Part shown: positions 4,890 through 19,569 of the stretch, piece by piece
How the letters are laid out: each line of letters begins with the position of its first letter
Numbering within the stretch: position 1 is the stretch's first letter
Source of the DNA: an uncultured Mediterraneibacter sp.
GTDB taxonomy: Bacteria > Bacillota > Clostridia > Lachnospirales > Lachnospiraceae
Direction of reading: 5' to 3'
NCBI GenBank assembly: GCA_944377745.1
Contig: CALWFV010000007.1
Coordinates: forward strand, 27,031 to 91,030
DNA length: 64,000 nucleotides
Notes under the pieces: model-generated
Databases searched by the model: none
The model's input: only the letters and a program-made list of their open reading frames with translations
What the model was told of the DNA's origin: nothing
Translations under genes and position numbers: made by a program

Positions 4890-4918
4890 TTGACAAATTA
4901 TTAACAATGTGATATCCT
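4890..4918 (+). promoter_or_regulatory. sigma-70 promoter of the malate/fumarate locus
   Basis: TTGACA (4890-4895), exact 17-bp spacer, TATCCT (4913-4918). The predicted transcript begins near 4925, leaving a 5' leader of about 200 nt before the dehydrogenase gene. Confidence 0.7.
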
Positions 4919-5127: not shown

Positions 5128-6075
5128 ATGGGCAGTAAAATCACCATCATCGGCGCAGGAAGTGTCGGAGCAACAATCGCATTCAAACTCTCTTCTGAAG
5201 ATATCGCATCAGAGATTGTTATGATCGATATCAATAAGGATAAGGTAGAGGGAGAGGTTATGGACATTGAGCAGGGAACCTGCTTCAGAAGCCCGATCTC
5301 TATCATCGCAGGAGATTATGCGGATGCAAAAGATTCCGACATTGTCATCATCACATCCGGAATCGCCCGCAAACCGGGACAGACAAGAATCGAACTTGCG
5401 CAGACAAATGTCAACATTATCAAATCCATCACACCGGAGATCGTAAAAGCGGCTCCGAATGCAAAATATATCATTGTCAGCAACCCGGTTGACATCCTGA
5501 CATATGTATTCACAAAGATTTCAGGACTTCCGGAAAACCAGATCATCGGATCCGGTACACTTCTTGACACGGCACGTCTTCGCTATGGACTGTCATCACA
5601 CTTTAAAGTTGCACAGAAGAACATCCATGCTTATGTGTTCGGCGAGCACGGAGATTCCTCTTTTGTACCGTGGTCAGGAGCGGATATCTCCAGCGTGAAC
5701 ATTGACGACTACTATGAGTCAATGAAAGCGCATGGCTCCGACCTTGCGGAACTGGACAAAGACGGAATGGAGGAGTATGTACACAAATCAGGCGGACAGG
5801 TCATCGCAAAGAAAGGGGCTACTTTCTATGCGGTATCTGTTTCTGTATGTGAACTGTGCAGCATCGTGCTGGCGGCTTCAGACTCTGTCGCAACAGTTTC
5901 TACCATGATGCACGGCGAGTACGGCATTGACGACGTATGTCTGAGTGTTCTGAACCTTGTGGGACCAAACGGCGTTCAGGGCAAGATCCCGATGCGCCTG
6001 ACAGATGAGGAAGTTGCAAAACTTCAGTCCAGCGCAAATAAGCTGAAAGAGGTTATCGCTCAGCTTGATATCTAA
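5128..6075 (+). CDS. NAD-dependent malate dehydrogenase of the lactate/malate dehydrogenase family
   Basis: A 315-residue cytosolic 2-hydroxyacid dehydrogenase. The NAD-binding GAGSVG is at 9-14, with catalytic His174 (GEHGD), Asp147 and substrate-binding Arg150. The overall sequence looks like L-lactate dehydrogenase. However, the residue equivalent to Gln102 of Bacillus LDH, which sets substrate choice, is Arg81 here (IARKPGQTR), as in malate dehydrogenases. Reduction of oxaloacetate to malate fits the fumarase and fumarate reductase genes downstream. AGGAGG at 5114-5119 fixes the start at 5128 rather than the in-frame ATG at 5008. Expected to be annotated as lactate dehydrogenase by similarity. 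Confidence 0.85.
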   Translation: MGSKITIIGAGSVGATIAFKLSSEDIASEIVMIDINKDKVEGEVMDIEQGTCFRSPISIIAGDYADAKDSDIVIITSGIARKPGQTRIELAQTNVNIIKSITPEIVKAAPNAKYIIVSNPVDILTYVFTKISGLPENQIIGSGTLLDTARLRYGLSSHFKVAQKNIHAYVFGEHGDSSFVPWSGADISSVNIDDYYESMKAHGSDLAELDKDGMEEYVHKSGGQVIAKKGATFYAVSVSVCELCSIVLAASDSVATVSTMMHGEYGIDDVCLSVLNLVGPNGVQGKIPMRLTDEEVAKLQSSANKLKEVIAQLDI

Positions 6076-6084
6076 TCCCCAATT

Positions 6085-6107
6085 TCCCTGGCGCACTGCG
6101 CTGGGGA
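6085..6107 (+). other. intergenic hairpin between dehydrogenase and hdrB genes
   Basis: TCCCTGGCGCA (6085-6095) and TGCGCTGGGGA (6097-6107) form an 11-bp stem with G-U pairs and no following T run. It is more likely an RNA processing or stability element than a full terminator. Confidence 0.4.
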
Positions 6108-6161
6108 ATGATCAAGTAACAGGGCGGATCAGTTCCGCCTGACAGACGAGGAGGTAATACT

Positions 6162-6959
6162 ATGAAATACAGCTATTTTCCCGGCTGTACTCTGAAGAAC
6201 AAGGCACAGGATCTTGATCACTATGCCAGAATTTCCGCAGAAGCTCTGGGATTTGAACTGGAAGAGATCAGCGAATGGCAGTGCTGCGGCGGTGTTTATC
6301 CCCTGGGAACCGATGAGATCGCAACAAAGCTTGCCTCCGTCCGCGCGCTCAACGACGCGAAAGAGAAGGGGCAGGAGCTTGTCACACTCTGTTCTGCCTG
6401 TCACCATGTGATCAAGCGTGTGAACGACGATATGAAGAACGTCGATGATATCCGTACAAGAGCCAACAACTATATGGCACTTGACGAGCCATATGAAGGT
6501 GAGACGAATGTGCTCCACTATCTTGAAGTGCTCCGCGACATCGTGGGTTTTGATGAGCTGAAGAAGAAAGTGACGAATCCGCTCAAAGGAAAGAAGATCG
6601 GCGCGTACTATGGCTGTCTTCTTCTCCGTCCCGGAAAGATCATGGCGTTTGACGATCCGGAAAACCCGAAGATCCTGGAAGATTTCATCCGCGCGATTGG
6701 CGCAGAGCCGGTGATCTATCCGTACCGCAACGAGTGCTGTGGAGGATACATATCTCTGAAGGAAGAAGAAATGTCAAAGAATATGTGCCGCAAGATCGAG
6801 GAGAGCGCGTCCGGTTTCGGAGCTGACATGCTGATCACGGCCTGTCCGCTGTGCATGTACAACCTGAACAAGAACAATGGCGGAAACCTGCCTGTTTATT
6901 ACTTTACAGAACTTCTTGCAGAGGCACTGGGACTGAAAGAGGAGGTGAAGGAACAGTGA
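6162..6959 (+). CDS. hdrB: HdrB-like heterodisulfide reductase subunit B (CoB-CoM Hdr family)
   Basis: A 265-residue cytosolic subunit with two complete CCG domains: Cys9, CCGG in the mid-forties and CSAC, then YGC, ECCGG and CPLC. In methanogen HdrB such motifs hold two non-cubane [4Fe-4S] clusters that reduce a disulfide. A gut Clostridium is not expected to use CoM-CoB heterodisulfide, so the acceptor here is different or the clusters only relay electrons. AGGAGGT precedes the start, and the stop overlaps hdrC by four bases. It is the first gene of the Hdr-Flx-Frd run. Confidence 0.88.
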   Translation: MKYSYFPGCTLKNKAQDLDHYARISAEALGFELEEISEWQCCGGVYPLGTDEIATKLASVRALNDAKEKGQELVTLCSACHHVIKRVNDDMKNVDDIRTRANNYMALDEPYEGETNVLHYLEVLRDIVGFDELKKKVTNPLKGKKIGAYYGCLLLRPGKIMAFDDPENPKILEDFIRAIGAEPVIYPYRNECCGGYISLKEEEMSKNMCRKIEESASGFGADMLITACPLCMYNLNKNNGGNLPVYYFTELLAEALGLKEEVKEQ

Positions 6960-7345
6960 AGACTGAGAAGAACCGCGCGGAACTGATCAAGGAGATCAGC
7001 GGCGTGAATCCCCTGAAGTGTATGAAATGCGGTAAATGTTCCGCTTCCTGTCCCTCCTACAATGAGATGGACATCAAACCTCACCAGTTCGTATCCTACG
7101 TGATCAATGAAGATATCGAGTCTCTGGTGAATTCAAAATCCCTCTGGAAATGCCTTTCCTGTTTTGCATGTGTGGAGAGATGTCCCCGCGATGTGAAGCC
7201 AGGTAAACTGATCGACGCGGCGAGACAGATCGTTGTGAGAGAGCGGGACAACACTTATCTGTCACCGGATGAGGTGCCGGAACTGCTTGATCCCGAAACA
7301 CCGCAGCAGCTGCTTGTAAGTGCGTTCAGAAGATACAGGAGGTGA
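6956..7345 (+). CDS. hdrC: HdrC-like 4Fe-4S heterodisulfide reductase subunit C
   Basis: A 129-residue protein with two ferredoxin-type cluster motifs, CMKCGKCSASCP near residue 22 and CLSCFACVERCP near residue 67. In Hdr complexes HdrC carries electrons from HdrA to HdrB. The GTG start at 6956 overlaps the hdrB stop, and AGAGGAGG lies just upstream. The separate, short HdrC is the bacterial/methanogen arrangement, not a fused form. Confidence 0.87.
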   Translation: MKTEKNRAELIKEISGVNPLKCMKCGKCSASCPSYNEMDIKPHQFVSYVINEDIESLVNSKSLWKCLSCFACVERCPRDVKPGKLIDAARQIVVRERDNTYLSPDEVPELLDPETPQQLLVSAFRRYRR

Positions 7346-7353
7346 GAGAAAAG

Positions 7354-9342
7354 GTGCAGAGGATTGGAGTATTTGTCTGCCACTGCGGTACAAACATCGC
7401 AGCTACGGTAGACGTAAAGAAAGTTGTGGAGATGGCCCAGCATGAGCCGGGAGTTGTCCATGCGGAGGACTATGCGTACATGTGTTCCGAAGCCGGACAG
7501 GAGCTGATCCACAAGGCAATCAAAGAGAAAAAACTGACGGGGCTTGTAGTCTGTTCCTGTTCTCCGCGTATGCACGAGACGACATTCAGAAACGCGGCGG
7601 AGAAAGCGGGCTTAAACCCATACATGGTGGAGATCGCCAACATCCGTGAACACTGTTCATGGATCCACAAGGACATCGGGGAAGCAACAGAGAAAGCTGT
7701 CATCCTGATGCGGGCGGCGATTGCCAAGGTCAACCTGGACGCGCCGCTGAAACCGGGCGAGAGCAAAGTCACAAAGAGAGCCCTTGTCATCGGCGGAGGA
7801 ATCGCTGGTATTCAAACAGCGCTGGACATTGCAGAGGCGGGATATCCGGTTGATATCGTGGAGAAGACGCCGAGTATCGGAGGAAGGATGTCACAGCTTG
7901 ACAAGACCTTCCCGACACTGGACTGTTCCTCCTGTATCCTGACCCCGAAGATGGGAGAGGTGAACGCTCACCCGCTGATCAACATCTATACATACAGCGA
8001 AGTGGAGAGCGTAGCCGGATTCGTGGGGGACTTTACCGTTGAGATCCGTAAGAAAGCAAGAAGCGTGGATATGGACAAGTGTACAGGCTGCGGCTTGTGC
8101 CAGGAGAAATGCCCGAGCAAGAAGAGTCTCAGCGAGTTTAACCGGGGGTTAAGCACACGGAGTGCGATCTATACTCCGTTCGCGCAGGCAGTTCCGAACG
8201 TTCCGGTGATCGACAGGGAGGCGTGTATCAAGTTCAAGACCGGCAAGTGCGGAATATGTTCGAAAGTCTGCCAGGCGGGCGCGATTGATTATGACCAGAC
8301 AGATGAGATTGTTACAGAAAAGTACGGTGCGATCGTCGTTGCGACCGGATTCGATATGATCAAACTGGACAAGTATGACGAGTATGCGTACAGTCAGAGC
8401 AAGGATGTCATCACATCTCTCGAACTGGAGCGTATTATGAACGCGGCAGGACCGACCGGCGGGCATCTTGAGCGTCTCTCTGACGGAAAGGATCCGAAGG
8501 AAATCGTGTTCATCCAGTGCGTGGGAAGCCGCTGTGCAGACGACAGAGGAAAGAGCTACTGTTCCAAGATATGCTGTATGTACACTGCGAAACATGCAAT
8601 GTTGATCCGTGACAAGTATCCGGATACCAATGTGACAGTATTCTACATTGATGTCCGTACGCCGGGAAAGAATTTCGACGAGTTCTACCGCAGAGCCGTG
8701 GAGGACTATGGAGTAAACTACATAAAAGGCCAGGTCGGAAAAGTTATTCCGCAGCCCAATGGAAAGCTGCTCGTACAGGGCGCGGATCTGCTGGACAGCA
8801 AGCAGATCTTAAAAGAGGCTGATATGGTCGTTCTTGCAGCTGCCATCGAGCCGAATCCGGATGTGAGAAAGATCGCTACCATGCTGACAGCAAGTATCGA
8901 TACAAACAACTTCCTCACGGAAGCTCATGCGAAACTTCGTCCGGTAGAGTCCCCCACAGCGGGTATTTTCCTCTCCGGCGTATGCCAGGGACCGAAGGAT
9001 ATCCCGGAGACCGTATCTCAGGCAGGTGCGGCGGCGGTTAAAGCCATCGGACTGCTTGCGAAGGATAAGCTGCTGACCAATCCGTGTACGGCACATTCCG
9101 ATGAACTGATGTGTAACGGATGTTCACAGTGTGCGAATGTCTGCCCGTACGGAGCGATCACATATGAGGACAGAGAGGTGAATGATCACGGAATCCGTGA
9201 GAGAAGACGCATCGCTGTTGTAAACGACGCGCTGTGTCAGGGATGTGGAGCATGTACCGTAACATGTCCGTCCGGAGCAATGGACCTGCAGGGATTCTCT
9301 AACAGACAGATCTTAGCGGAGGTGGATGCGATATGTCGATAG
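7354..9342 (+). CDS. hdrA: HdrA-like flavin-bifurcating subunit
   Basis: A 662-residue FAD and multi-[4Fe-4S] protein, the expected site of flavin-based electron bifurcation. Visible are an N-terminal Cys-rich segment (VCHCGTN), an FAD-binding VIGGGIAGIQTA near residue 145, the HdrA-typical DCSSCILTPKM, a ferredoxin-like pair (CTGCGLCQEKCP and CGICSKVCQ) and a C-terminal pair (CNGCSQCANVCP and CQGCGACTVTCP). The GTG at 7354 has AGGAGGTGA at good spacing; the GTG at 7342 overlaps that site and is less likely. It overlaps the next gene by 10 bases. Confidence 0.9.
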   Translation: MQRIGVFVCHCGTNIAATVDVKKVVEMAQHEPGVVHAEDYAYMCSEAGQELIHKAIKEKKLTGLVVCSCSPRMHETTFRNAAEKAGLNPYMVEIANIREHCSWIHKDIGEATEKAVILMRAAIAKVNLDAPLKPGESKVTKRALVIGGGIAGIQTALDIAEAGYPVDIVEKTPSIGGRMSQLDKTFPTLDCSSCILTPKMGEVNAHPLINIYTYSEVESVAGFVGDFTVEIRKKARSVDMDKCTGCGLCQEKCPSKKSLSEFNRGLSTRSAIYTPFAQAVPNVPVIDREACIKFKTGKCGICSKVCQAGAIDYDQTDEIVTEKYGAIVVATGFDMIKLDKYDEYAYSQSKDVITSLELERIMNAAGPTGGHLERLSDGKDPKEIVFIQCVGSRCADDRGKSYCSKICCMYTAKHAMLIRDKYPDTNVTVFYIDVRTPGKNFDEFYRRAVEDYGVNYIKGQVGKVIPQPNGKLLVQGADLLDSKQILKEADMVVLAAAIEPNPDVRKIATMLTASIDTNNFLTEAHAKLRPVESPTAGIFLSGVCQGPKDIPETVSQAGAAAVKAIGLLAKDKLLTNPCTAHSDELMCNGCSQCANVCPYGAITYEDREVNDHGIRERRRIAVVNDALCQGCGACTVTCPSGAMDLQGFSNRQILAEVDAICR

Positions 9343-9779
9343 AAAAGAACGAAGAATTCAGACCAAAGATCGTTGCGTTCTGCTGCAACTGGTGCAGTTA
9401 TGCAGGCGCAGACCTGGCGGGAAGCAGCCGTATGTCCTATTCGGCAGATGTGAAGATCATCCGCGTCCCCTGCTCCTGCCGTGTCAATCCGATGTTCATC
9501 TTAAGAGCATTCGAGAGAGGAGCGGACGGCGTTATCATGTGCGGATGCCATCCGGGAGACTGTCACTACACGTCAGGAAACTTCTATGCGAGAAGACGTA
9601 TGACGCTGCTCTTCTCCATGCTGGATTACATCGGAGTGGAAAGCGGACGTACCCGCGTAGAGTGGGTATCGGCGGCTGAGGGCGCCAAATTCTCCCAGAC
9701 TATGCATGAGTTTGTGGACAAGATCACGTCTCTCGGCAAGAATGTAAGATTGGAGGATTTAAGATGCAGGAATTTGTAA
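9333..9779 (+). CDS. MvhD/FlxD-like [2Fe-2S] electron-transfer subunit
   Basis: A 148-residue protein of the hydrogenase iron-sulfur (MvhD) family. Cysteines occur as CCNWCSYAG, PCSCRVNP and CGCHPGDCHY. MvhD or FlxD hands electrons from the NADH- or hydrogen-oxidising partner to HdrA. Overlap with both neighbours (10 and 16 bases) implies coupled translation. No hydrogenase genes follow, so the electron donor should be the Flx proteins encoded next. Confidence 0.86.
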   Translation: MSIEKNEEFRPKIVAFCCNWCSYAGADLAGSSRMSYSADVKIIRVPCSCRVNPMFILRAFERGADGVIMCGCHPGDCHYTSGNFYARRRMTLLFSMLDYIGVESGRTRVEWVSAAEGAKFSQTMHEFVDKITSLGKNVRLEDLRCRNL

Positions 9780-10813
9780 AGGCAACGAGCCAGGCGGGAG
9801 CTAGTTCACATCTGGCGACTGCCGGGCAACGAGAGTCGCAGACTCGAGTGATTAACCGCGCGAAAGAGCTTCTGGCTGACGGAACTGTGGCGAGAGTGCT
9901 CGGATGGAAAGCCGGGGATCTGCCTTACAATCCGGAACCGGCTTACTTTGAGAAAGAAGAAGACTTTGCGGATTTCGTATACAACGGATTCTGTGGAGCG
10001 AATTTAAGCAAATATATGATCGAGGCTTCCAAACTGGAGGGAAAGACTCTTGTCTGCCTGAAGCCATGCGATACATACAGCTTCCAGGAGCTGATGAAAG
10101 AGCACCGTGTTGACCGCGACAAAGCGTATATCATCGGTGTGGGATGCAAAGGAAAACTGGATATCGAAAAGATCAAAGCCATGGGCATCAAAGGAATCCA
10201 GAGCATATCCGGCGCAGAGCTCGAGGACGAGGCAGAGACCCTGACGATCCAGACGATCTATGGAGAAAAGACCTGCGCGTACAAAGACGCCATGCTTGAG
10301 AGATGCCATGTCTGTAAAGGAAAGGACCACATGATCTTTGACGAGATCATCGGCGAGTCCAAAGAGACGAAGGATGCGGACCGCTTCACAGAAGTGGAGA
10401 AGATTGAGGCGATGAGTCCGGAAGAGAAATTCGCATTCTTCCAGAAAGAGCTGAGCAAGTGCATCCGCTGCAATGCCTGCAGAAACGTATGTCCGGCATG
10501 CAGCTGCAGAAAATGCGTATTTGACAGCAACAAGTTTGACAGTGCACAGAAGGCGAACGTGGATTCTTTCGAGGAGAAGATGTTCCACATCATCCGTGCT
10601 TTCCATGTAGCAGGAAGATGTACAGACTGCGGCGAGTGCAGCAGAGTATGTCCGCAGGGAATTCCGCTCCACCTGTTCAATCGGAAGTTCATCAAGGATA
10701 TCGATGAGCTTTACGGCGAGTATCAGGCGGGAGCAGATCTGGAACCGAGAACCCCTCTTACCGATTACCGGTTTGAGGATGCTGAGCCTGGGATCGTGGC
10801 AGAAAGGGGATAA
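9764..10813 (+). CDS. FlxC/FrhB-like 4Fe-4S and flavin electron-transfer protein
   Basis: A 349-residue cytosolic protein. The N-terminal two-thirds resemble the FrhB/FdhB family (LKPCDTYSFQEL, IIGVGCKGKLD and CHVCKGKDH). The C-terminal third has two ferredoxin motifs, CIRCNACRNVCPACSCRKC and CTDCGECSRVCPQG. GGAGGA precedes the ATG at 9764. Its place between MvhD-like and FlxB-like genes matches the third Flx subunit of the FlxABCD-HdrABC complex known from Desulfovibrio. Exact subunit naming is by order and is an inference. Confidence 0.72.
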   Translation: MQEFVKATSQAGASSHLATAGQRESQTRVINRAKELLADGTVARVLGWKAGDLPYNPEPAYFEKEEDFADFVYNGFCGANLSKYMIEASKLEGKTLVCLKPCDTYSFQELMKEHRVDRDKAYIIGVGCKGKLDIEKIKAMGIKGIQSISGAELEDEAETLTIQTIYGEKTCAYKDAMLERCHVCKGKDHMIFDEIIGESKETKDADRFTEVEKIEAMSPEEKFAFFQKELSKCIRCNACRNVCPACSCRKCVFDSNKFDSAQKANVDSFEEKMFHIIRAFHVAGRCTDCGECSRVCPQGIPLHLFNRKFIKDIDELYGEYQAGADLEPRTPLTDYRFEDAEPGIVAERG

Positions 10814-10816
10814 TGT

Positions 10817-11860
10817 ATGTATAAGATCGCGAAAGAAAATCTGACGGCATTATTTCAGAAGATTGCCTCAGAACAGGAATTATATCTGCCGGTGAAGACC
10901 GCAGGTCAGACAAACTTCGGTGTGTGGACAGAGGACGCTCAGGTCGATCTTGATACACTGAAAACAGTGAAATCTCCGAAAGATGCCTTCTTCCCACAGA
11001 GCGAGACGCTTTACACCTGTATCAGGGACGGGAAGAAGCTGAAAATCGAGCCGGAAGCCCTCAAAGATCAGAACTTTGTCGTATTCGGAATGAGGGGCTG
11101 CGACGTAAAGGGAGTGGAGGTGCTTGACCGCGTATTCCTCGTAGATCCGCTGGATACATTCTATGCGGCGCGCAGGGACCACGGGACGATCGTAGCGCTT
11201 GCCTGCCACGAGCCGGAGGAGACCTGCTTCTGCAAGGTGTTCGGCGTTGATGCTGCGGATCCGTCTGCGGCTGATGTGGCGACATGGATCATCGACGGTA
11301 CTCTGTACTGGAAGGCCCTCACTGAGAAGGGAGAGGCGCTCACAGAGACGGTAAAAGATCTTCTTGAGGAGGACAACAGTGCGGATGAGATCGTTGAGAA
11401 AGAGAAAGCGTCAGTACGTGATATCGTAGAGAAGCTTCCCTATATGCATCTTTCCCTGGAGGGATGGAACGGGGATGTTCTGATGGAGAAATTCGAGGAT
11501 CCGCTGTGGGATGAACTCTACAAACCATGTCTTGCGTGCGGAACCTGTACTTTTGTATGTCCCACATGTCAGTGTTATGATATCAAAGACTATGATGCGG
11601 GCAGGAATGGAGTTCAGAGATACCGCTGCTGGGATTCCTGCATGTACTCTGATTTCACTATGATGGCCCACGGGAACAACCGTAAATCTCAGAAGGAGAG
11701 ATTCCGTCAGAGATTCATGCATAAGCTGGTGTACTATCCGGCAAATAACGAAGGCATGTATTCCTGCGTCGGCTGCGGCAGATGTGTGGAGAAGTGCCCT
11801 GCTTCACTGAATATCGTGAAGGTCATAAAAGCGTTTCAGAAACAGGGAGGTGAGCAGTAA
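10817..11860 (+). CDS. FlxB-like 4Fe-4S dicluster protein
   Basis: A 347-residue protein related to the beta subunits of sulfhydrogenase/HydB and FlxB. The N-terminal domain has conserved acidic and hydrophobic blocks (GMRGCDVKGVEVLDRVF). Two C-terminal [4Fe-4S] motifs follow, CLACGTCTFVCPTCQCYD and CVGCGRCVEKCP. It should pass electrons between the NADH-binding FlxA-like subunit and the rest of the complex. The stop TAA overlaps the next ATG by one base (TAATG), a coupling signal. Confidence 0.78.
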   Translation: MYKIAKENLTALFQKIASEQELYLPVKTAGQTNFGVWTEDAQVDLDTLKTVKSPKDAFFPQSETLYTCIRDGKKLKIEPEALKDQNFVVFGMRGCDVKGVEVLDRVFLVDPLDTFYAARRDHGTIVALACHEPEETCFCKVFGVDAADPSAADVATWIIDGTLYWKALTEKGEALTETVKDLLEEDNSADEIVEKEKASVRDIVEKLPYMHLSLEGWNGDVLMEKFEDPLWDELYKPCLACGTCTFVCPTCQCYDIKDYDAGRNGVQRYRCWDSCMYSDFTMMAHGNNRKSQKERFRQRFMHKLVYYPANNEGMYSCVGCGRCVEKCPASLNIVKVIKAFQKQGGEQ

Positions 11861-12714
11861 TGAGTGAATGTACCTGTCATAAGAACTACACACTGGATAC
11901 TCTGATCCCGAAAGTAGGCGTGATCACGGATATCCGCGAGGAGACGCCGGACGTCAAGACATTCCGCGTGAACGCGCCGGAGGGCGGCAAGCTCTTCGAG
12001 CATATGCCGGGACAGTGCGCGATGCTCTGCGCTCCGGGAATCAGCGAAGGTATGTTTTCGATTACCTCTTCGCCGACCAATAAAGAATATCAGGAATTCA
12101 GCATCAAAAAATGCGGTGTGCTGACCGACTATCTCCACAGTCTGGAGGTGGGGGATGAGATCACAGTCCGCGGACCTTACGGAAATCATTTCCCGGTAGA
12201 AGACAAGCTCAAAGGCAAGGATCTTCTGTTCATCGCCGGCGGAATCGGACTTGCTCCGCTTCGTTCGGTTATCAATTACGTGCTGGACAACCGCGGTGAT
12301 TACGGTACAGTGGACATTGTGTATGGATCCCGTTCCGCGGACGATCTGGTTCAGTTAAAAGAGATCCAGGAGGTCTGGATGAACGCGCCGGATGTGCATG
12401 TCCATCTTACCATTGACCGCGAGCAGGAAGGCTGGGACGGCCATGTGGGATTTGTGCCGAATTACGTAAAGGAGCTTGGATTCGATGTAAACAAGACAGC
12501 TCTGATCTGCGGACCACCGATCATGATCAAGTTTACTCTTTCAGGTCTTGAGGAACTGGGCTTTTCCAGAGAGCAGGTTTATACAACGCTTGAGCTTCGC
12601 ATGAAATGCGGGATCGGCAAGTGCGGAAGATGCAACATCGGATCAAAATATGTATGTAAAGACGGCCCGGTATTTCGTTGCGATGAGATCGATGAGATGC
12701 CGAATGAATACTAG
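11860..12714 (+). CDS. FlxA-like FAD/NAD(P)-binding oxidoreductase (PyrK-like fold)
   Basis: A 284-residue ferredoxin reductase-type subunit predicted to oxidise NADH or NADPH. It has an FAD-binding domain (PGQCAMLC, SITSSPTNK), an NAD-binding domain (FIAGGIGLAPLRSVINY) and a C-terminal [2Fe-2S] cysteine set (MKCGIGKCGRCNIG with a later KYVCKDGP). The same architecture occurs in PyrK, sulfhydrogenase gamma and FlxA. It gives the locus a nicotinamide entry point, so NADH is the likely donor for bifurcation at HdrA. Confidence 0.82.
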   Translation: MSECTCHKNYTLDTLIPKVGVITDIREETPDVKTFRVNAPEGGKLFEHMPGQCAMLCAPGISEGMFSITSSPTNKEYQEFSIKKCGVLTDYLHSLEVGDEITVRGPYGNHFPVEDKLKGKDLLFIAGGIGLAPLRSVINYVLDNRGDYGTVDIVYGSRSADDLVQLKEIQEVWMNAPDVHVHLTIDREQEGWDGHVGFVPNYVKELGFDVNKTALICGPPIMIKFTLSGLEELGFSREQVYTTLELRMKCGIGKCGRCNIGSKYVCKDGPVFRCDEIDEMPNEY

Positions 12715-12731
12715 GGAAAGGAAGAAATATC

Positions 12732-13406
12732 ATGGAGAAAATGGTAAATGTATATTTTTTCGGTAAGAAATACAGTGTGCCGGCTGATCTGACGATCATG
12801 ACAGCTATGGAATATGCTGGCTACACACTGAAAAGAGGATGCGGCTGCCGTCATGGTTTCTGCGGTGCCTGTGCTACGATCTACAGGATCAAAGGAAAAA
12901 ATGAGCTGAAGACATGTCTCGCCTGTCAGACACAGGTTGAGGAAGGCATGTATGTGGCAAGCATCCCGTTCTTCCCGACAGACAAGAGAACATATGATAT
13001 CAACGAGATCCGTCCGGAACAGAGAGTCATGATGGACCTGTACCCGGAGATCTACAGCTGCATCGGCTGCAATGCCTGCACAAAGGCATGTACACAGGAT
13101 CTGAATGTCATGCAGTACATAGCATATGCACAGCGCGGTGATTTTGAGAAATGTGCGGAAGAGTCCTTCGACTGTATCGGATGCGGATGCTGCTCCGTGA
13201 GATGTCCGGCTGGTATCTCCCACCCGATGGTAGGAGTCCTCGCAAGACGTCTGACAGGAAAATACATCGAGCCTGAGTCAGAGCATCTTACAAAGCGTGT
13301 GGAGGAGATCCACCACGGCGATTATGACGAACTGATCGAGCAGATCATGGAGAAACCGATCACAGAGATGCAGGAACTTTACAACAACAGAGAGATCGAG
13401 AAATAA
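12732..13406 (+). CDS. FrdB/TfrB-like Fe-S subunit of a soluble fumarate reductase
   Basis: A 224-residue protein with an N-terminal [2Fe-2S] ferredoxin domain (Cys37, Cys39, Cys44, Cys47, with Cys62/Cys65 in TCLAC). Two C-terminal cluster motifs follow, CIGCNACTKACTQ and CIGCGCCSVRCP. This is the layout of FrdB/SdhB and of the N-terminal part of methanogen TfrB, which also has a fused CCG (HdrB-like) region. Here no CCG region is attached and a separate HdrB is encoded in the same operon. It has no membrane segment. GGAAAGGAAG precedes the start. Confidence 0.82.
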   Translation: MEKMVNVYFFGKKYSVPADLTIMTAMEYAGYTLKRGCGCRHGFCGACATIYRIKGKNELKTCLACQTQVEEGMYVASIPFFPTDKRTYDINEIRPEQRVMMDLYPEIYSCIGCNACTKACTQDLNVMQYIAYAQRGDFEKCAEESFDCIGCGCCSVRCPAGISHPMVGVLARRLTGKYIEPESEHLTKRVEEIHHGDYDELIEQIMEKPITEMQELYNNREIEK

Positions 13407-13418
13407 GGAGGGAAGATC

Positions 13419-15020
13419 ATGTTTACACCGGAAATGATGGAATCCGTAAAAAAAGTGGAGGCCACCAGAGCATCCCGTCTGGGCGTTGAGCCGAGACGTA
13501 TGTCCGCAGATGAAAAAGATGCCCTTCTTAAGGCATTTCATCCTGACTATAAAGAAGACGCGTTCGCAGAGATCAAGGTAGGACCGAACAAAGGCCAGAA
13601 AGCACCGAAGGAACTGGTACACCTTCTGCATTCTAACAGCCGTCTTCTCGCAGACAAGGTTGATATCAATAAAGTTGATTACGACGTTGACGTGCTCATC
13701 ATCGGAGGCGGCGGAGCAGGAGCTTCCGCAGCCATCGAGGCTGACGAGGCAGGCGCGAACGTCATGATCGTCACAAAACTCCGCATCGGTGACGCCAACA
13801 CCATGATGGCAGAGGGCGGTATCCAGGCGGCTGACAAAGAGAATGACTCCCCGGTACAGCACTATCTGGACGCTTTCGGAGGCGGACATTTTGCCGCGAG
13901 ACCGGAGCTGTTAAGACGTCTTGTCATGGAAGCTCCGGATGCGATCAAATGGCTCAATGATCTGGGAGTTATGTTCGATAAGGACAAAGACGGACGGATG
14001 ATCACCACACACGGCGGTGGAACATCAAGAAAGAGAATGCATGCATGCAAGGACTACTCCGGAGCAGAGATCATGCGTACTCTTCGCGATGAAGTATTAA
14101 ACCGCCAGATTCCGATCGCTGAGTTTACAGCGGCAGTGGAACTGATCAGAGACGACAGGGGACAGGTTGCGGGCGCTGTTCTTCAGAACCTGGAGACAGA
14201 CGACTATCTTGTAGCAAAGGCAAAGACTGTCATCATCGCAACAGGCGGTGCTGGACGTATGCACTATCAGGGATTCCCGACATCCAACCATTACGGTGCA
14301 ACCGCAGATGGACTGATCCTTGGATACCGTCTGGGCGCGCCGCTCCTGTATCAGGATACGATTCAGTATCATCCGACAGGAGTTGCATATCCGTCACAGA
14401 TATTCGGTGCTCTTGTGACAGAGAAAGTTCGTTCCGTGGGAGCGCAGCTTGTAAATGTTGACGGTGAAGCTTTCATGCATCCGCTGGAGACACGTGATGT
14501 TGCTGCTGCAGGAATCATCCGTGAGTGTACAGAGCGCGGCAAAGGAGTGACTACACCGCTTGGAAGCGGCGTATGGCTTGATACCCCGATGATCGAGGAG
14601 ATCGGCGGTGCCGGAACGATCGAGAAGCGTATCCCCGCGATGCTCCGTATGTACATGAACTACGACATCGATATGAGAAAACTTCCGATCCTCATATACC
14701 CGACACTCCATTACCAGAACGGCGGACTGGAGATCGGCGGGGACGGATTTACAAAGGTAATCGACAACCTGCTGGTAGCAGGAGAGGCAGTCGGCGGAAT
14801 CCACGGAAGAAACCGTCTGATGGGCAACTCCCTGCTCGACATTATCGTATTCGGACGCAACGCGGGAAAAGCTGCGGCTGCGAAAGCGAAAAGCGTGGAG
14901 CTTGGAAATATGAATCTTGATCACGTAGAAGCATATGCAGAGGAACTCAAAGAGGCAGGCTTGGATACAGGTGATGTTTCACCGCTTCTGCTCCCGAAAT
15001 ACGCGAGACATGAGAGATAG
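13419..15020 (+). CDS. FrdA-like flavoprotein, catalytic subunit of a soluble fumarate reductase
   Basis: A 533-residue flavoprotein. FAD-binding GGGGAGAS is at 97-104. All expected dicarboxylate and proton-transfer residues are present: His318 in HPTG, Glu335, Arg338, Arg359 (TRD), His431 (HYQNGG) and Arg466 (NRLMGNS). The residue that binds FAD covalently in membrane FrdA/SdhA (His in RSHT) is Asn127 here (DANTMMAEGG), so FAD should be non-covalent. An N-terminal extension of about 85 residues precedes the Rossmann fold. There is no signal peptide and no membrane-anchor gene nearby. L-aspartate oxidase is an alternative, made unlikely by the FrdB-like neighbour and fumarase genes. Confidence 0.85.
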   Translation: MFTPEMMESVKKVEATRASRLGVEPRRMSADEKDALLKAFHPDYKEDAFAEIKVGPNKGQKAPKELVHLLHSNSRLLADKVDINKVDYDVDVLIIGGGGAGASAAIEADEAGANVMIVTKLRIGDANTMMAEGGIQAADKENDSPVQHYLDAFGGGHFAARPELLRRLVMEAPDAIKWLNDLGVMFDKDKDGRMITTHGGGTSRKRMHACKDYSGAEIMRTLRDEVLNRQIPIAEFTAAVELIRDDRGQVAGAVLQNLETDDYLVAKAKTVIIATGGAGRMHYQGFPTSNHYGATADGLILGYRLGAPLLYQDTIQYHPTGVAYPSQIFGALVTEKVRSVGAQLVNVDGEAFMHPLETRDVAAAGIIRECTERGKGVTTPLGSGVWLDTPMIEEIGGAGTIEKRIPAMLRMYMNYDIDMRKLPILIYPTLHYQNGGLEIGGDGFTKVIDNLLVAGEAVGGIHGRNRLMGNSLLDIIVFGRNAGKAAAAKAKSVELGNMNLDHVEAYAEELKEAGLDTGDVSPLLLPKYARHER

Positions 15021-15034
15021 GAAAGGGAGAGAAC

Positions 15035-16204
15035 ATGTTTTTAATTGAATGGTTCCAGGACAGTGTCATGAGCGAAACGCTCATGGTACTGTTCCTGGTA
15101 GCGTTTGTTGGCTATCTGGTAGGAAGTATTACAATCAAAGGGGTAGAACTGGGGACGGCAGGCGTTCTGCTTGTCGCTCTCGTGTTCGGACATTTCATCG
15201 GAAACAATGAAGAACTGGTAAGTGGTCTTGGAATGTTCCAGGATTTGGGGCTGATCTGTTTTGTGACTTCTGTTGGCTTTATCGCGGGACCGAAATTTTT
15301 CCGAAATTTCAAGATCAATGCAAAGTCGTATATCCTTCTGGGATTTATCGTCATTGCGATCGGTGCTATTGTCACCGCCGGAATTATCGAGATTGCCGGC
15401 GTTCCTACGGATATCACAGTAGGTATGATGTCAGGAGCACTGACGAGCACGCCGGGGCTGGCGGCTGCGATCGATGCAACCGGCTCTGCAAATGCGTCTG
15501 TAGGATACGGAATTGCATATCCTTTCGGTGTTGTCGGTGTAGTGCTGTTTGTACAGCTTGTGCCGAAGATGTTAAAAACTGATATGGCTGCTGAGAGAGC
15601 AAAGTTTGAGGCGGCTCAGAATGTTGGCGATGTGAAAACGAAAGATAATCTAGTTCATGTTGATGCGATGGGATTCTTCCCGTTTGCACTTGCAATCGCG
15701 CTGGGAATCGTCCTTGCCAAGATTGTGATCCCGCTTCCGGGCGGAGCAGAGTTCTCACTGGGCACGTCAGGCGGTCCGCTGATCGCAGGTCTGATCCTCG
15801 GTCACTTCGGACATGCAGGGAAGATCAGCTTCCATGTGGAAAAATCTGTGCTGGAGTGCTTAAGAGAGTTCGGTCTGGCTTTGTTTCTGATCGGAGCAGG
15901 CGTGGAGGCTGGAGCAGGATTTATCGAGATCCTGCAGGAACAGGGACTGATCCTCTTTGTATACGGCGCGCTGATCACTCTGATCCCGATGATCGTCGGA
16001 TACTTTGTTGCGACAAAGCTGATGAAGCTGAGCCTCTTCAACACACTCGGATCTATCTGCGGCGGCATGACAAGCACGCCGGCTCTCGGAACATTGATCC
16101 GTGTGACCGGAACAGACGACGTGGCGTCCGCGTATGCTGCGACCTATCCGGTAGCTCTGGTGTTTGTGGTGCTGGCATGCCAGTTCATCGGTATTTTCCT
16201 GTGA
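15035..16204 (+). CDS. AspT/YidE-family permease, probable succinate or dicarboxylate exporter
   Basis: A 389-residue inner-membrane protein with about ten hydrophobic segments in two similar halves (SGALTSTPGLAAAI in the first, CGGMTSTPALGTLI in the second), the duplicated signature of the aspartate:alanine exchanger family. SucE of Corynebacterium, a succinate exporter, belongs to this family. The RCK/TrkA-C domains usual in the middle are missing here. It lies between fumarate reductase and fumarase genes, which suggests export of the succinate formed. Confidence 0.75.
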   Translation: MFLIEWFQDSVMSETLMVLFLVAFVGYLVGSITIKGVELGTAGVLLVALVFGHFIGNNEELVSGLGMFQDLGLICFVTSVGFIAGPKFFRNFKINAKSYILLGFIVIAIGAIVTAGIIEIAGVPTDITVGMMSGALTSTPGLAAAIDATGSANASVGYGIAYPFGVVGVVLFVQLVPKMLKTDMAAERAKFEAAQNVGDVKTKDNLVHVDAMGFFPFALAIALGIVLAKIVIPLPGGAEFSLGTSGGPLIAGLILGHFGHAGKISFHVEKSVLECLREFGLALFLIGAGVEAGAGFIEILQEQGLILFVYGALITLIPMIVGYFVATKLMKLSLFNTLGSICGGMTSTPALGTLIRVTGTDDVASAYAATYPVALVFVVLACQFIGIFL

Positions 16205-16232
16205 TCTGAAGCAGGTTTTATATTCTATCAGG

Positions 16233-16303
16233 AATTTTCGGCGGATCTGCAGAGCCCTGGCAAAGCGGTCCGCGGAAAACATTCCGCAGTTGACTGCGGG
16301 AAT
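16233..16303 (+). other. two hairpins between exporter and fumarase genes
   Basis: An outer hairpin pairs TTTTCGGCGGATC-like sequence with GGTCCGCGGAAAA (about 16235-16279). A second, ATTCCGCAGT (16281-16290) with ACTGCGGGAAT (16293-16303), has a 2-base loop. No T run follows, so these look like mRNA stability or processing elements that could set different subunit levels. Confidence 0.4.
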
Positions 16304-16343
16304 AAAATCCAAACAAAATTAAAAATGGAAGGAGTTGGCTTTC

Positions 16344-17186
16344 ATGCGTGAAATTAATGTAAGCACACTTACAGACGTGATCGAGAGACTCTGCATCGAG
16401 GCAAACGAGCATCTCCCGGAAGACGTGAAATGTGCGATCCGCGACTGCCGTGCGTGTGAGGACGGAGAGATCGCAAAAGGCGTTCTCGACAACATCATCG
16501 AGAACTATGAGATCGCAGACAATGAGAATGTGCCGATCTGCCAGGATACAGGTATGGCATGTGTATTCCTTGAGATCGGACAGGATGTACATCTTGTAGG
16601 AGGAGACCTTGCAGAGGCAGTGGACGAGGGAGTACGCCGCGGATATACAAACGGATATCTCCGTAAATCTGTTGTGAAGGATCCTGTCCGCCGTGGAAAC
16701 ACCGGAGACAATACACCGGCTATGCTCTACACAGAGATCGTGCCCGGTGAGAACATCAAGGTCACAGTAGGACCGAAGGGATTCGGAAGCGAGAACATGA
16801 GCCAGATCCGTATGTTCAAGCCGTCAGCGGGACTTCAGGGTATCAAGGACTTCATCATTGAAGCAGTGGAGACGGCAGGACCGAATCCATGTCCTCCTAT
16901 GGTCGTAGGCGTTGGTATCGGCGGTACATTTGACAAGTGTGCTCTTCTTGCAAAGAAAGCGCTCATGAGACCCCTCGATTCCTCAAATCCGGATCCGTTC
17001 TATGCAGATCTGGAAAAAGAGATGCTGGAGAAGATCAACGAGCTGGGTATCGGACCTCAGGGATTCGGAGGAAAGACGACAGCCATCGGTCTGAATATCG
17101 AGACAATGCCGACACATATCGCAGGTATGCCGTGCGCAGTCAACATTAACTGCCATGTGACACGCCACAAATCGGAGGTGATATAA
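16344..17186 (+). CDS. class I fumarate hydratase alpha subunit
   Basis: A 280-residue subunit of an oxygen-sensitive [4Fe-4S] hydro-lyase that interconverts malate and fumarate. Cluster cysteines are expected at Cys66 (VPICQDTG), in GPNPCPPM and in [18 protein letters not shown] at 16327-16334 sets the ATG at 16344; an in-frame TTG lies at 16335. The beta subunit starts directly after the stop. The related L-tartrate dehydratase is an alternative, but the neighbouring malate dehydrogenase and fumarate reductase genes favour fumarase. Confidence 0.86.
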
Positions 17187-17744
17187 ATGGCAAGAAAGAT
17201 TACATTACCACTCACAGAGGAACTTGCTAAGACACTTCACGCGGGAGATCAGGTACTTCTTACAGGAACAATCTATACATCCCGCGACGCCGGACACAAG
17301 AGAATGTGCGAGGCTCTTGCAAAGGGAGAGAAGATCCCCTTTGATCCGACGGATGCGACGATCTACTATGTGGGACCGACTCCGGCAAAACCGGGGCATG
17401 TCATCGGAAGCGCCGGCCCGACGACCAGCGGACGTATGGATGCATACGCACCGACCATGATGTCTGTCGGGGCAAGAGGTATGATCGGAAAAGGCGCGCG
17501 CCTTCCTGAGGTTGTGGAGGCGATGAAGAAATACAGCGGCGTTTACTTTGGAGCGATCGGAGGAGCGGGGGCTCTTCTTGCCAAATGTATCAAGAAAGCC
17601 GAGCTGATCGCATATGAAGATCTGGGGGCAGAGGCTCTGAGAAAACTCTATGTGGAGGATATGCCGGTTGTTGTCATTATTGACAGCGAGGGGAATAACC
17701 TGTACGAAGAGGGAAGGAAGGCTTATCTGGAGTCTAGGAAATAG
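17187..17744 (+). CDS. class I fumarate hydratase beta subunit
   Basis: A 185-residue C-terminal-type fumarase domain with the characteristic GPTTSGRMDAYAP and KGARLPEV segments and the GAIGGAGALLAKC block. It begins at the base after the alpha stop with GGAGGTGAT upstream. In Escherichia coli FumA these two parts are fused; split subunits are common in Clostridia. Last gene of the malate-fumarate-succinate locus. Confidence 0.88.
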   Translation: MARKITLPLTEELAKTLHAGDQVLLTGTIYTSRDAGHKRMCEALAKGEKIPFDPTDATIYYVGPTPAKPGHVIGSAGPTTSGRMDAYAPTMMSVGARGMIGKGARLPEVVEAMKKYSGVYFGAIGGAGALLAKCIKKAELIAYEDLGAEALRKLYVEDMPVVVIIDSEGNNLYEEGRKAYLESRK

Positions 17745-18032: not shown

Positions 18033-19523
18033 TTACAGGACGCTGATGAAGCGGTGGAAGGATTCGAGGCCTTCGGGGGTGCATTTGTAGACTCCGGCGT
18101 CTTCGAGTACCTGGCAGAAGACTTTTCCGACTTCCTGTTCCAGGATGTGCTCGATATTGTCTGCGTTGACGTTCGGATAGTTCGGAAGGAACTCGTCTAC
18201 CCAGTCTGTATGTTTTTCGATCTGCTCGTTGCTGCGGATATCTTTTCCTTCCAGAATGTATTCCTTCAGAAGTTCCATCTCGCCTTTCAGACGAGCCGGG
18301 AGTACGGCAAGTCCCATGACTTCGATCAGTCCGATGTTCTCCTTCTTGATGTGGTGGAGTTTTGCGTGGGGGTGATATACGCCCAGCGGATGCTCATCTG
18401 TAGTGATATTGTTGCGCAGTGTCAGATCCAGTTCATACAGATCACCGCGTTTCCTCGCAATAGGAGTGATCGTGTTGTGAGGCGTTCCGTCTGTCTCCGC
18501 GAAGATGAAAGCGTCCTCATCCGTATACCCGCGCCATTTGCCCAGAATATGGTCGGCGAGGTCGATGACTCTCTCCACATCCTTGCTCTGAAGGCGGATG
18601 ACGGAGAGGGGCCATTTCACGATGCCTGCTGTGACGTCCTCATAGCCTGTTACAGTAAAGTTCTCGATGACAGGAGCTTTTGCCATTGCAAAAGTATAAT
18701 TTCCGCCCTGGAAATGATCATGGCTTAAGATGGAACCGCCCACGATCGGAAGATCCGCATTGGATCCCAGGAAATAGTGGGGGAACAGTTTGATGAAATC
18801 GAACAGTTTTGCAAATGCCTTCCGGTCGATCTTCATCGGGATATGCTCGCCGTTGAAGACGATGCAGTGCTCATTGTAGTATACATACGGAGAATACTGG
18901 AATCCCCATTTGCTTCCCTGGATCTGGATCGGGATGATCCTGTGGTTCTCCCTTGCAGGATGATTTGCACGTCCTGCATATCCTTCGTTCTCCATGCAGA
19001 GCTGGCATTTCGGATAGGATGCCGATTTTGCCTTTCCGGCAGCGGCGATGGCTTTCGGATCTTTTTCCGGTTTGGAAAGATTGATGGTGATGTCCAGCGT
19101 GCCGTACTGGGTGTCCACCGTCCATTTCCTGTCCTTTTTAATGCGGTAGCGACGGATATAGTCACTGTCCTGGCTGAGTTTATAGTAATACGCCGTTGCG
19201 TCTTCCGGTGACTTTTCGTATTCTTTCCAGAACTTCTCCTGGACCTGTGCAGGACGGGGCATCAGGCAGTTCATGAGACGTGTGTCAAAAAGATCTCTGT
19301 AGGTGACACTGTCCTCAATCAGCCCTCTCTTTACCGCCTCATCCAGAAGCTCGCCGAGCACATCTTCCAGGACGATATTGCTCAGATCGCAGTCTACATC
19401 CTCGTAATCATCCTCTTTCATCACATCGAGGATAAGATTAGTCGTGTAAATCCTTTCTGATTCCGGGGTGAGCCCGGTATCGATCCCGTACTGTACCAGT
19501 TTCCTGACCGCTTCATAGATCAT
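18033..19523 (-). CDS. galT: UDP-glucose--hexose-1-phosphate uridylyltransferase, class II
   Basis: A 496-residue class II GalT (the Firmicutes type, unlike the short HPHPQ-signature enzyme of E. coli). It exchanges galactose-1-phosphate with UDP-glucose in the Leloir pathway. Recognisable blocks are HWNP-like replacement segments such as LSHDHFQGGNYTFAMA and YHPHAKLHHIKKENIGLIEVMG. AAGGAGGT lies before the ATG at 19523; longer in-frame starts run into galK. It is 46 bases downstream of galK in the same operon. Confidence 0.92.
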   Translation of the reverse strand: MIYEAVRKLVQYGIDTGLTPESERIYTTNLILDVMKEDDYEDVDCDLSNIVLEDVLGELLDEAVKRGLIEDSVTYRDLFDTRLMNCLMPRPAQVQEKFWKEYEKSPEDATAYYYKLSQDSDYIRRYRIKKDRKWTVDTQYGTLDITINLSKPEKDPKAIAAAGKAKSASYPKCQLCMENEGYAGRANHPARENHRIIPIQIQGSKWGFQYSPYVYYNEHCIVFNGEHIPMKIDRKAFAKLFDFIKLFPHYFLGSNADLPIVGGSILSHDHFQGGNYTFAMAKAPVIENFTVTGYEDVTAGIVKWPLSVIRLQSKDVERVIDLADHILGKWRGYTDEDAFIFAETDGTPHNTITPIARKRGDLYELDLTLRNNITTDEHPLGVYHPHAKLHHIKKENIGLIEVMGLAVLPARLKGEMELLKEYILEGKDIRSNEQIEKHTDWVDEFLPNYPNVNADNIEHILEQEVGKVFCQVLEDAGVYKCTPEGLESFHRFISVL

Positions 19524-19569
19524 TGATGTTACCTCCTTGATATTGATATTTTCAGGAAGATGAGCGGGA

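What the first reader, a model, noticed from the sequence alone, without database searches (positions are those of the whole stretch)
5128..17744. Cytosolic NADH-driven, probably electron-bifurcating fumarate reduction locus (Hdr-Flx-Frd)
One strand carries, nearly without gaps, malate dehydrogenase, HdrB, HdrC, HdrA, MvhD/FlxD-, FlxC-, FlxB- and FlxA-like proteins, FrdB-like and FrdA-like proteins, an AspT/SucE-type exporter and both fumarase subunits. FlxABCD-HdrABC is a known NADH-linked complex in Desulfovibrio, where the acceptor is thought to be a DsrC disulfide. No DsrC is seen here. Methanogen TfrB fuses an FrdB part to a CCG (HdrB-like) part; here these are separate proteins in one operon. 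Inference: HdrB passes electrons to FrdAB, so NADH oxidation drives fumarate reduction (exergonic) and ferredoxin reduction together. This would be a quinone-free, membrane-free way to save energy during succinate formation.
Basis: partly seen in the sequence, partly recalled or inferred. Interest (0 to 1): 0.88.

Follow-up and report, generated by a model that had tools for sequence, protein, structure and literature searches.

The report
Bifurcating fumarate reductase operon, gut Clostridia
A gut bacterium carries, as one gene block, an NADH-oxidising electron-splitting complex next to a soluble fumarate reductase, which could let it make succinate and save energy without quinones; the arrangement was already proposed in print for another bacterium and is here found tightly conserved among gut Clostridia.

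Summary
In detail: window 5128-17744 (+) holds mdh-hdrBCA-flxDCBA-frdBA-aspT-fumAB in a Mediterraneibacter-like genome.

The idea is not new. A 'succinate operon' with fumarase, Flx-Hdr, fumarate reductase and a possible exporter, proposed to bifurcate, is in print for Pseudoclostridium thermosuccinogenes; a similar flx-hdr/tfrAB proposal exists for tubeworm symbionts.

Found here:
- hdrBCA-flxDCBA-frdBA is complete in 59/59 named loci and 18/18 class loci with enough sequence, one shared.
- 27 of 196 class genomes have HdrA and FrdA; 3 have one.
- HdrBs linked to frdBA form a 100/100 group that also takes in 7 unlinked HdrBs, all from FrdA genomes, and none of 21 from genomes without FrdA.
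- FrdB has two [4Fe-4S] motifs; FrdA lacks the covalent-FAD histidine. No DsrC, Sdh cytochrome or above-cutoff MenB; Rnf and PEPCK present.

Against: elsewhere FrdBA sits beside cytochromes or in genomes where no HdrA was found.

The parts
5128..6075 (+). mdh: malate dehydrogenase of the LDH-like group (ORF open from 5008)
   Evidence: Arg at the LDH-102 position in 71 of 71 operon loci with a readable copy
6162..6959 (+). hdrB: two CCG domains, proposed electron exit to FrdB
   Evidence: 10 cysteines conserved in 92 of 92; only CCG protein over cut-off found in the genome
6956..7345 (+). hdrC: two [4Fe-4S] motifs (ORF open from 6851)
7342..9342 (+). hdrA: proposed bifurcating FAD subunit with ferredoxin domains
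   Evidence: 683.6 bits to HdrA 5odc over 6-664; C591-C642 kept in 102 of 102 copies
9333..9779 (+). flxD / mvhD-like [2Fe-2S] protein
   Evidence: PF02662, 178.8 bits
9764..10813 (+). flxC-like Fe-S protein
   Evidence: Fer4 domains, conserved position in the block
10817..11860 (+). flxB-like (sulfhydrogenase/AsrA beta type) Fe-S protein
   Evidence: Fer4_22; 170 bits to sulfhydrogenase 1 beta 9nez
11860..12714 (+). flxA-like FAD/NAD(P)H-binding subunit
   Evidence: PF00175, PF00970, PF10418; HydG/AsrB-like
12732..13406 (+). frdB-like: [2Fe-2S] plus two CxxCxxCxxxC motifs
13419..15020 (+). frdA-like fumarate reductase flavoprotein without covalent-FAD His
15035..16204 (+). aspT/YidE-class exporter (possible succinate exporter)
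   Evidence: TIGR01625 188.7 bits, above cut-off
16335..17186 (+). fumarate hydratase alpha subunit
   Evidence: NF004885 416 bits, above cut-off
17187..17744 (+). fumarate hydratase beta subunit
   Evidence: NF005310 295 bits, above cut-off
4890..4918 (+). promoter-like site ahead of mdh
   Evidence: TTGACA-17-TATCCT with TG; a consensus match only

Best explanation
A soluble NADH-dependent, flavin-bifurcating fumarate reductase. FlxA takes hydride from NADH; FlxB, FlxC and FlxD pass electrons to the FAD of HdrA. There one electron goes through HdrA's ferredoxin domain to ferredoxin, the other through HdrC and HdrB to FrdB and the FAD of FrdA, which reduces fumarate. Net: 2 NADH + fumarate + oxidised ferredoxin give 2 NAD+ + succinate + reduced ferredoxin. 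The cluster also supplies malate dehydrogenase, fumarase and a probable succinate exporter. Reduced ferredoxin is probably re-oxidised by Rnf with ion pumping. Shown: genes, motifs, gene-order conservation, co-occurrence, HdrB grouping, RnfC and PEPCK genes present, no DsrC or Sdh cytochrome found. Inferred: complex formation, electron path, bifurcation, ferredoxin use, export.
For: Nine-gene block intact in 59/59 named and 18/18 class loci with at least 8.7 kb upstream (one locus is in both sets), and 21/21 plus 9/9 shorter loci agree as far as they go. HdrA and FrdA together in 27 of 196 class genomes, one alone in 3. In the phylum sample 35 of 39 FrdA genomes have HdrA, against 106 of 359 without FrdA (kinship not corrected for). 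HdrB tree: one 100/100 group holds all 23 Frd-linked HdrBs used and 7 unlinked ones, all 7 from FrdA genomes and 0 of 21 from others (Fisher p 0.009, kinship not corrected for). Precedent for an HdrB-like partner of SdhB: SdhE of SdhABE, whose SdhB also has a second [4Fe-4S] (passages); window FrdB has that pattern. HdrA keeps the C-terminal ferredoxin cysteines in 102 of 102 copies and aligns end to end with methanogen HdrA. FrdA keeps the His/Arg residues recalled as catalytic in E. coli FrdA. Energetics: about -43 kJ per mol succinate at Fd -450 mV and NADH -320 mV. RnfC and PEPCK in the genome. In another lineage korAB- and sucCD-like genes follow frdBA, a direct ferredoxin user.
Against: No biochemical test. 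FrdBA of the same family lies beside cytochrome b561- or NapC-type genes in 5 of 39 phylum genomes, and in 4 of 39 no HdrA was found (at most 3 candidates per genome were scored there), so HdrB is not its only possible donor. G190 has frdBA and only a distant HdrA. HdrB keeps both non-cubane cluster cysteine sets, so disulfide reduction remains possible. HdrA also groups by Frd type, in two groups, so the HdrB signal is partly a whole-operon signal. Over all unlinked operons HdrB identity to the window did not differ between FrdA-plus and FrdA-minus genomes, and HdrA was closer in FrdA-minus ones. The FrdB model has pTM 0.47, and query-normalised TM is at most 0.28 among the 50 PDB matches listed.
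Confidence: 0.75

Rival explanations
1. The complex is real but does not bifurcate: HdrA only relays NADH electrons to FrdBA, wasting the energy.
For: NADH to fumarate is strongly downhill without coupling (-68 kJ/mol). Nothing here shows ferredoxin reduction.
Against: HdrA keeps the C-terminal ferredoxin-domain cysteines in 102 of 102 copies, which a plain relay would hardly need; RnfC is present; korAB-like genes follow frdBA in another lineage.
Confidence: 0.12
2. Two separate enzymes share an operon: HdrBCA-Flx reduces an unknown disulfide, and FrdBA takes electrons from another donor such as ferredoxin or flavodoxin.
For: Outside the class, frdBA and hdr-flx are often unlinked, and FrdBA has other neighbours. 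HdrB keeps both CCG cluster sites.
Against: No DsrC found in the genome. In the class no locus with enough sequence breaks the linkage. In 7 genomes the HdrB type follows FrdA even when unlinked.
Confidence: 0.1
3. The flavoprotein reduces or oxidises another substrate (another enoate, or aspartate as in NadB).
For: FrdA matches TfrA best and below its cut-off, with NadB models not far behind.
Against: Residues equivalent to E. coli FrdA H232, R287, H355 and R390 (recalled as catalytic) are kept; malate dehydrogenase and fumarase lie alongside; top fold match is E. coli quinol-fumarate reductase.
Confidence: 0.03

Closest known systems
'Succinate operon' of Pseudoclostridium thermosuccinogenes (BMC Microbiol 2020, PMC7282089, passages seen; it cites the 2019 preprint of Koendjbiharie and van Kranenburg, not held)
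   Same: Fumarase, seven-gene Flx-Hdr, two fumarate reductase genes and a possible succinate transporter, with the same bifurcation proposal
   Different: Different organism; fumarase at the other end by its locus tags; no malate dehydrogenase is named in that operon in the passages. Its sequences were not compared here
flxABCD-hdrABC with korABCD and tfrAB in tubeworm symbionts and Thioflavicoccus (mSphere 2019, PMC6315080, passages; Nat Microbiol 2024, PMC11636981, passages)
   Same: Hdr-Flx beside a fumarate reductase, direct electron transfer proposed
   Different: Part of a reverse TCA cycle; the reductase is named after methanogen TfrAB
FlxABCD-HdrABC of Desulfovibrio (Ramos 2015, seen only as a citation; Hdr/flox in PMC4215793, passages)
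   Same: Same kind of hdr-flx complex, NADH oxidation and proposed ferredoxin reduction, acting with Rnf
   Different: Proposed acceptor DsrC; its fumarate reductase is a separate quinol enzyme
E-type SdhABE / methylmenaquinol:fumarate reductase of Wolinella (PMC2680327, passages)
   Same: HdrB-like 10-Cys SdhE partner and SdhB with a second [4Fe-4S] in place of [3Fe-4S]
   Different: Membrane-linked; HdrA and Flx are not part of it (recalled)
Methanogen thiol:fumarate reductase TfrAB (recalled; NCBIfam NF004900, NF004898)
   Same: FrdA best matches TfrA; FrdB-like and HdrB-like parts
   Different: TfrB fuses both parts (recalled); here they are separate genes; scores are below the family cut-offs

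Membership tests
FlxABCD-HdrABC | All seven subunits in one cluster | tested here: met
FlxABCD-HdrABC | HdrB with two CCG cluster sites and HdrA with ferredoxin domains | tested here: met
   HdrB cysteines kept in 92/92; HdrA C591-C642 in 102/102
FlxABCD-HdrABC | DsrC as the proposed disulfide acceptor | tested here: not met
   no DsrC match in the genome; of 14 control genomes only E. coli rang. Concerns the acceptor, not the complex
P. thermosuccinogenes type succinate operon | Fumarase, Flx-Hdr, Frd and transporter in one cluster | tested here: met
P. thermosuccinogenes type succinate operon | Orthology of the proteins | not tested
   its name is not among the 80 best of 515 relatives kept
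Electron-bifurcating enzymes | Ferredoxin reduction coupled to the exergonic reaction | not testable with these tools
   needs an enzyme assay
E-type SdhABE | 10-Cys HdrB-like subunit and FrdB with two [4Fe-4S] motifs | tested here: met
E-type SdhABE | Quinone-linked SdhE anchor (NF042965) | tested here: not met
   140.7 bits against a cut-off of 500; the HdrB model scores almost the same, 138.5 against 345
TfrAB | FrdB and HdrB parts fused in TfrB | tested here: not met
   separate genes 6162-6959 and 12732-13406; TfrA 324.5 bits against 718
Quinol:fumarate reductase (FrdABCD, FrdCAB) | Cytochrome or membrane anchor subunits | tested here: not met
   no Sdh_cyt match in the genome, none in the operon; FrdC/FrdD models were not searched
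Quinol:fumarate reductase (FrdABCD, FrdCAB) | Covalent-FAD His and [3Fe-4S] in FrdB | tested here: not met
   Asn127, invariant in A1 (14 rows) and A3 (40 rows); all eight cluster cysteines present
Quinol:fumarate reductase (FrdABCD, FrdCAB) | Menaquinone synthesis | tested here: inconclusive
   menB match 85.6 bits, far below 342.7; the futalosine route was not searched

The most novel reading that the evidence does not exclude
HdrB is the interchangeable plug between the HdrA-Flx splitter and a shared fumarate reductase head. One HdrB lineage has become dedicated to FrdBA, keeping that tie whether the genes are linked (hdrBCA-flx-frdBA), reduced to hdrCB-frdBA, or scattered in the genome; the same FrdBA head is plugged into cytochrome b561 or NapC modules in other lineages. 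In gut Clostridia this makes fumarate reduction a quinone-free step that feeds ferredoxin to Rnf.
Probability: 0.5. Interest if true: 0.65.

Novelty: new member of a known kind. Interest (0 to 1): 0.5.

Why it matters
Succinate is an important gut metabolite. If this works as proposed, many Lachnospiraceae and other gut Clostridia make it without quinones or cytochromes and earn extra ion-motive force through ferredoxin and Rnf, so standard energy budgets of succinate formation would be too low for them. It would also give Flx-Hdr an acceptor that is a protein, not a disulfide, and it marks one clean operon family on which the proposal can be tested.

Tried and rejected
Considered and rejected: a DsrC-like acceptor (none found); a membrane QFR (no Sdh cytochrome); a lactate dehydrogenase at the head of the operon (Arg at the specificity position in 71/71); loss of frd in G027, G485 and G004 (their contigs end inside the operon).

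Against the reading: comparing all unlinked hdr operons, HdrB identity to the window was the same in FrdA-plus and FrdA-minus genomes (median 35.9 and 35.6, p 0.46), and HdrA was closer to the window in FrdA-minus genomes (58.2 against 54.3). Only the tree set the seven Frd-type HdrBs apart. I had noticed those seven by identity before building the tree, so the test is partly after the fact.

Led nowhere: the FrdB model (pTM 0.47) gave no good PDB match (query-normalised TM at most 0.28 among the 50 listed). Rfam found nothing in the window at gathering scores. An HdrB-FrdB interface could not be modelled (single chains only). A 2021 review of energy conservation in fermentations (PMC8473912) does not hold the words fumarate or heterodisulfide in its main text.

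Limits of counts: 21 of 80 named and 9 of 27 class loci had under 8.7 kb upstream and are not in the 59 and 18; all 30 agree as far as they go. Two of the 27 class loci are also among the 80, one of them in both full counts. In the phylum searches at most 3 candidates per genome were scored, in the class searches at most 6 or 7, so absences are weaker than presences. HdrB tree: 22 of 26 unlinked FrdA-plus loci, 21 of 23 FrdA-minus loci (no HdrB found in the others), 22 linked loci and the window; other loci with a linked HdrB (for example L108, genus loci among L093-L102 and the named loci) were not put in. The FrdB and FrdA models used 46 of 69 and 39 of 72 non-redundant loci listed, plus the window protein. 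Neighbours in other lineages were named by Pfam for one representative per cluster, the rest by sequence cluster.
Full report
OBSERVATION. The region 5128-17744 (+) contains, nearly without gaps, mdh, hdrB, hdrC, hdrA, flxD (mvhD-like), flxC, flxB, flxA, frdB, frdA, an AspT-class transporter and both fumarase subunits. A promoter-like site lies at 4890-4918; a terminator-like and a weaker promoter-like site lie between aspT and fumA (consensus matches only, and such sites are frequent here). The nearest named relative is an uncultured Mediterraneibacter (FrdA 97%).

PARTS. HdrA aligns over its whole length with methanogen HdrA. Most of its cysteines are invariant or nearly so in 92-102 copies; C71, C398 and C548 vary more. 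HdrB has ten cysteines in two CCG sites, kept in 92 of 92, and is the only CCG protein over cut-off found in the genome. FrdB is far from the standard family (26 bits, cut-off 88). Unlike E. coli FrdB it has two complete CxxCxxCxxxC motifs, so two [4Fe-4S] clusters are expected. FrdA keeps the His and Arg residues recalled as catalytic in E. coli FrdA, but the position of the covalent-FAD His is Asn127 in the 14 and 40 rows aligned. It lacks the E. coli C-terminal region and has an N-terminal extension. Its model (mean pLDDT 80.8, pTM 0.86) matches E. coli quinol-fumarate reductase best (TM 0.67). The mdh product is LDH-like but has Arg at the specificity position in 71 of 71 loci with a readable copy (the meaning of that residue is recalled).

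CONSERVATION IN THE CLASS. The nine-gene block hdrBCA-flxDCBA-frdBA is complete in 59 of the 59 with at least 8.7 kb upstream, and the 21 shorter ones agree as far as they reach. Named carriers include Blautia schinkii, Clostridium asparagiforme, Ohessyouella, Porcincola and Sporofaciens. The outer genes are less constant: of 60 named loci with all nine, mdh is seen in 47, aspT in 35, both fumarase genes in 24. In 196 class genomes HdrA was found in 29 and FrdA in 28, both in 27. Of the three single finds, G485 is cut by a contig end inside the operon, G477 has a distant HdrA (47%), and G520 is 75% complete with its contig cut upstream of flxC. Eighteen of 18 class loci with enough upstream sequence have the full block, one of them also among the 59; the nine shorter ones agree. 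In 61 relatives 17 have both, 2 only HdrA and 2 only FrdA. G004 and G027 are cut by contig ends, and so are G003 (inside flxC) and G016 (at frdA). In the genus itself the operon is patchy: FrdA of this kind was found in 16 of 37 genomes, own included.

BEYOND THE CLASS. In 398 phylum genomes FrdA of this family (52% identity or more, nearly full length) was found in 39 and HdrA (E at most 1e-100) in 141; 35 of the 39 have HdrA. At most three candidates per genome were scored there. The neighbours of frdBA differ. I sort the 39 thus. Linked hdr-flx: 6. Linked hdr with an extra long HdrA-like/pyridine-nucleotide protein, often followed by korAB- or sucCD-like genes: 11 (HdrB itself beyond the contig end in 2). 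Linked hdrCB without hdrA: 5 (one cut by a contig end and placed by its genus). No linked hdr but an Frd-type hdrBCA-flx elsewhere: 7. Cytochrome b561- or NapC-type neighbour: 5. No HdrA found: 4 (three of one genus, beside pyruvate carboxylase). G190 has only a distant HdrA.

HDRB FOLLOWS FRDA. In a maximum-likelihood tree of 66 HdrBs one branch (support 100/100, length 0.70) holds all 23 Frd-linked HdrBs used and exactly 7 unlinked ones. All 7 come from genomes with FrdA; none of 21 HdrBs from genomes without FrdA falls there (7 of 22 against 0 of 21, Fisher p 0.009, not corrected for kinship). The seven operons run hdrB-hdrC-hdrA, the 21 run hdrC-hdrB-hdrA, although some linked Frd-type operons also run C-B. 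HdrA groups by type too, in two groups with shorter stems (0.085 and 0.23, quick tree), so part of this is shared operon descent. Simple identity comparison did not show the split. Together with hdrCB-frdBA operons that lack hdrA, I read this as HdrB being the subunit fitted to FrdB. The known SdhABE enzymes have an HdrB-like SdhE next to an SdhB with a second [4Fe-4S] (PMC2680327, passages), which makes such a contact plausible.

MECHANISM. NADH electrons enter at FlxA, pass FlxB/C/D to HdrA, and split: low-potential electrons to ferredoxin, high-potential electrons through HdrC and HdrB to FrdB, FrdA and fumarate. At -320 mV for NADH and +33 mV for fumarate (values as in PMC5861303, passages) and -450 mV for ferredoxin (assumed), the coupled reaction yields about -43 kJ per mol succinate. 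The genome has RnfC (510 bits) and PEPCK, no DsrC match, no Sdh cytochrome match, and no MenB above cut-off (the futalosine route and FrdC/FrdD were not searched). So the reducing branch looks quinone-free, but the ferredoxin would most simply be used by membrane-bound Rnf. None of the electron steps has been measured here.

WHAT IS IN PRINT. BMC Microbiol 2020 (PMC7282089, passages) describes the 'succinate operon' of P. thermosuccinogenes with fumarase, Flx-Hdr, fumarate reductase and a potential succinate transporter. [quoted passage not shown] mSphere 2019 (PMC6315080, passages) suggests direct electron transfer from flxABCD-hdrABC to korABCD and tfrAB products. Searches bearing on a biochemical demonstration or on this operon in Lachnospiraceae showed none in the titles and abstract starts listed; most subscription journals are not in the library.

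VERDICT. The parts I did not find in print in those searches are its strict conservation in gut Clostridia, the dedicated HdrB lineage, and the exchangeable partners of FrdBA elsewhere.

Noticed in passing
   Followed up: partly
L084, L085, L086 and L074, L083: The same FrdBA family sits beside a cytochrome b561-type protein or a NapC-type cytochrome gene.
   Followed up: partly
L062, L064, L091: frdBA directly behind pyruvate carboxylase, in genomes where no HdrA was found.
   Followed up: no
window 5128-6075: The operon's malate dehydrogenase is an LDH-like protein that annotation models call lactate dehydrogenase.
   Followed up: yes
G-handle HdrA hits: Many HdrA genes outside the class hold one in-frame TGA, possibly selenocysteine; the window's HdrA does not.
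   Followed up: no
same-genus genomes: FrdA of this kind was found in 16 of 37 genomes of the genus, so the operon seems to be gained or lost often.
   Followed up: no
window 18033-20742 (-) and 2318-4186 (-): Operon flanks: galT and galK downstream, a heavy-metal P-type ATPase upstream.
   Followed up: no
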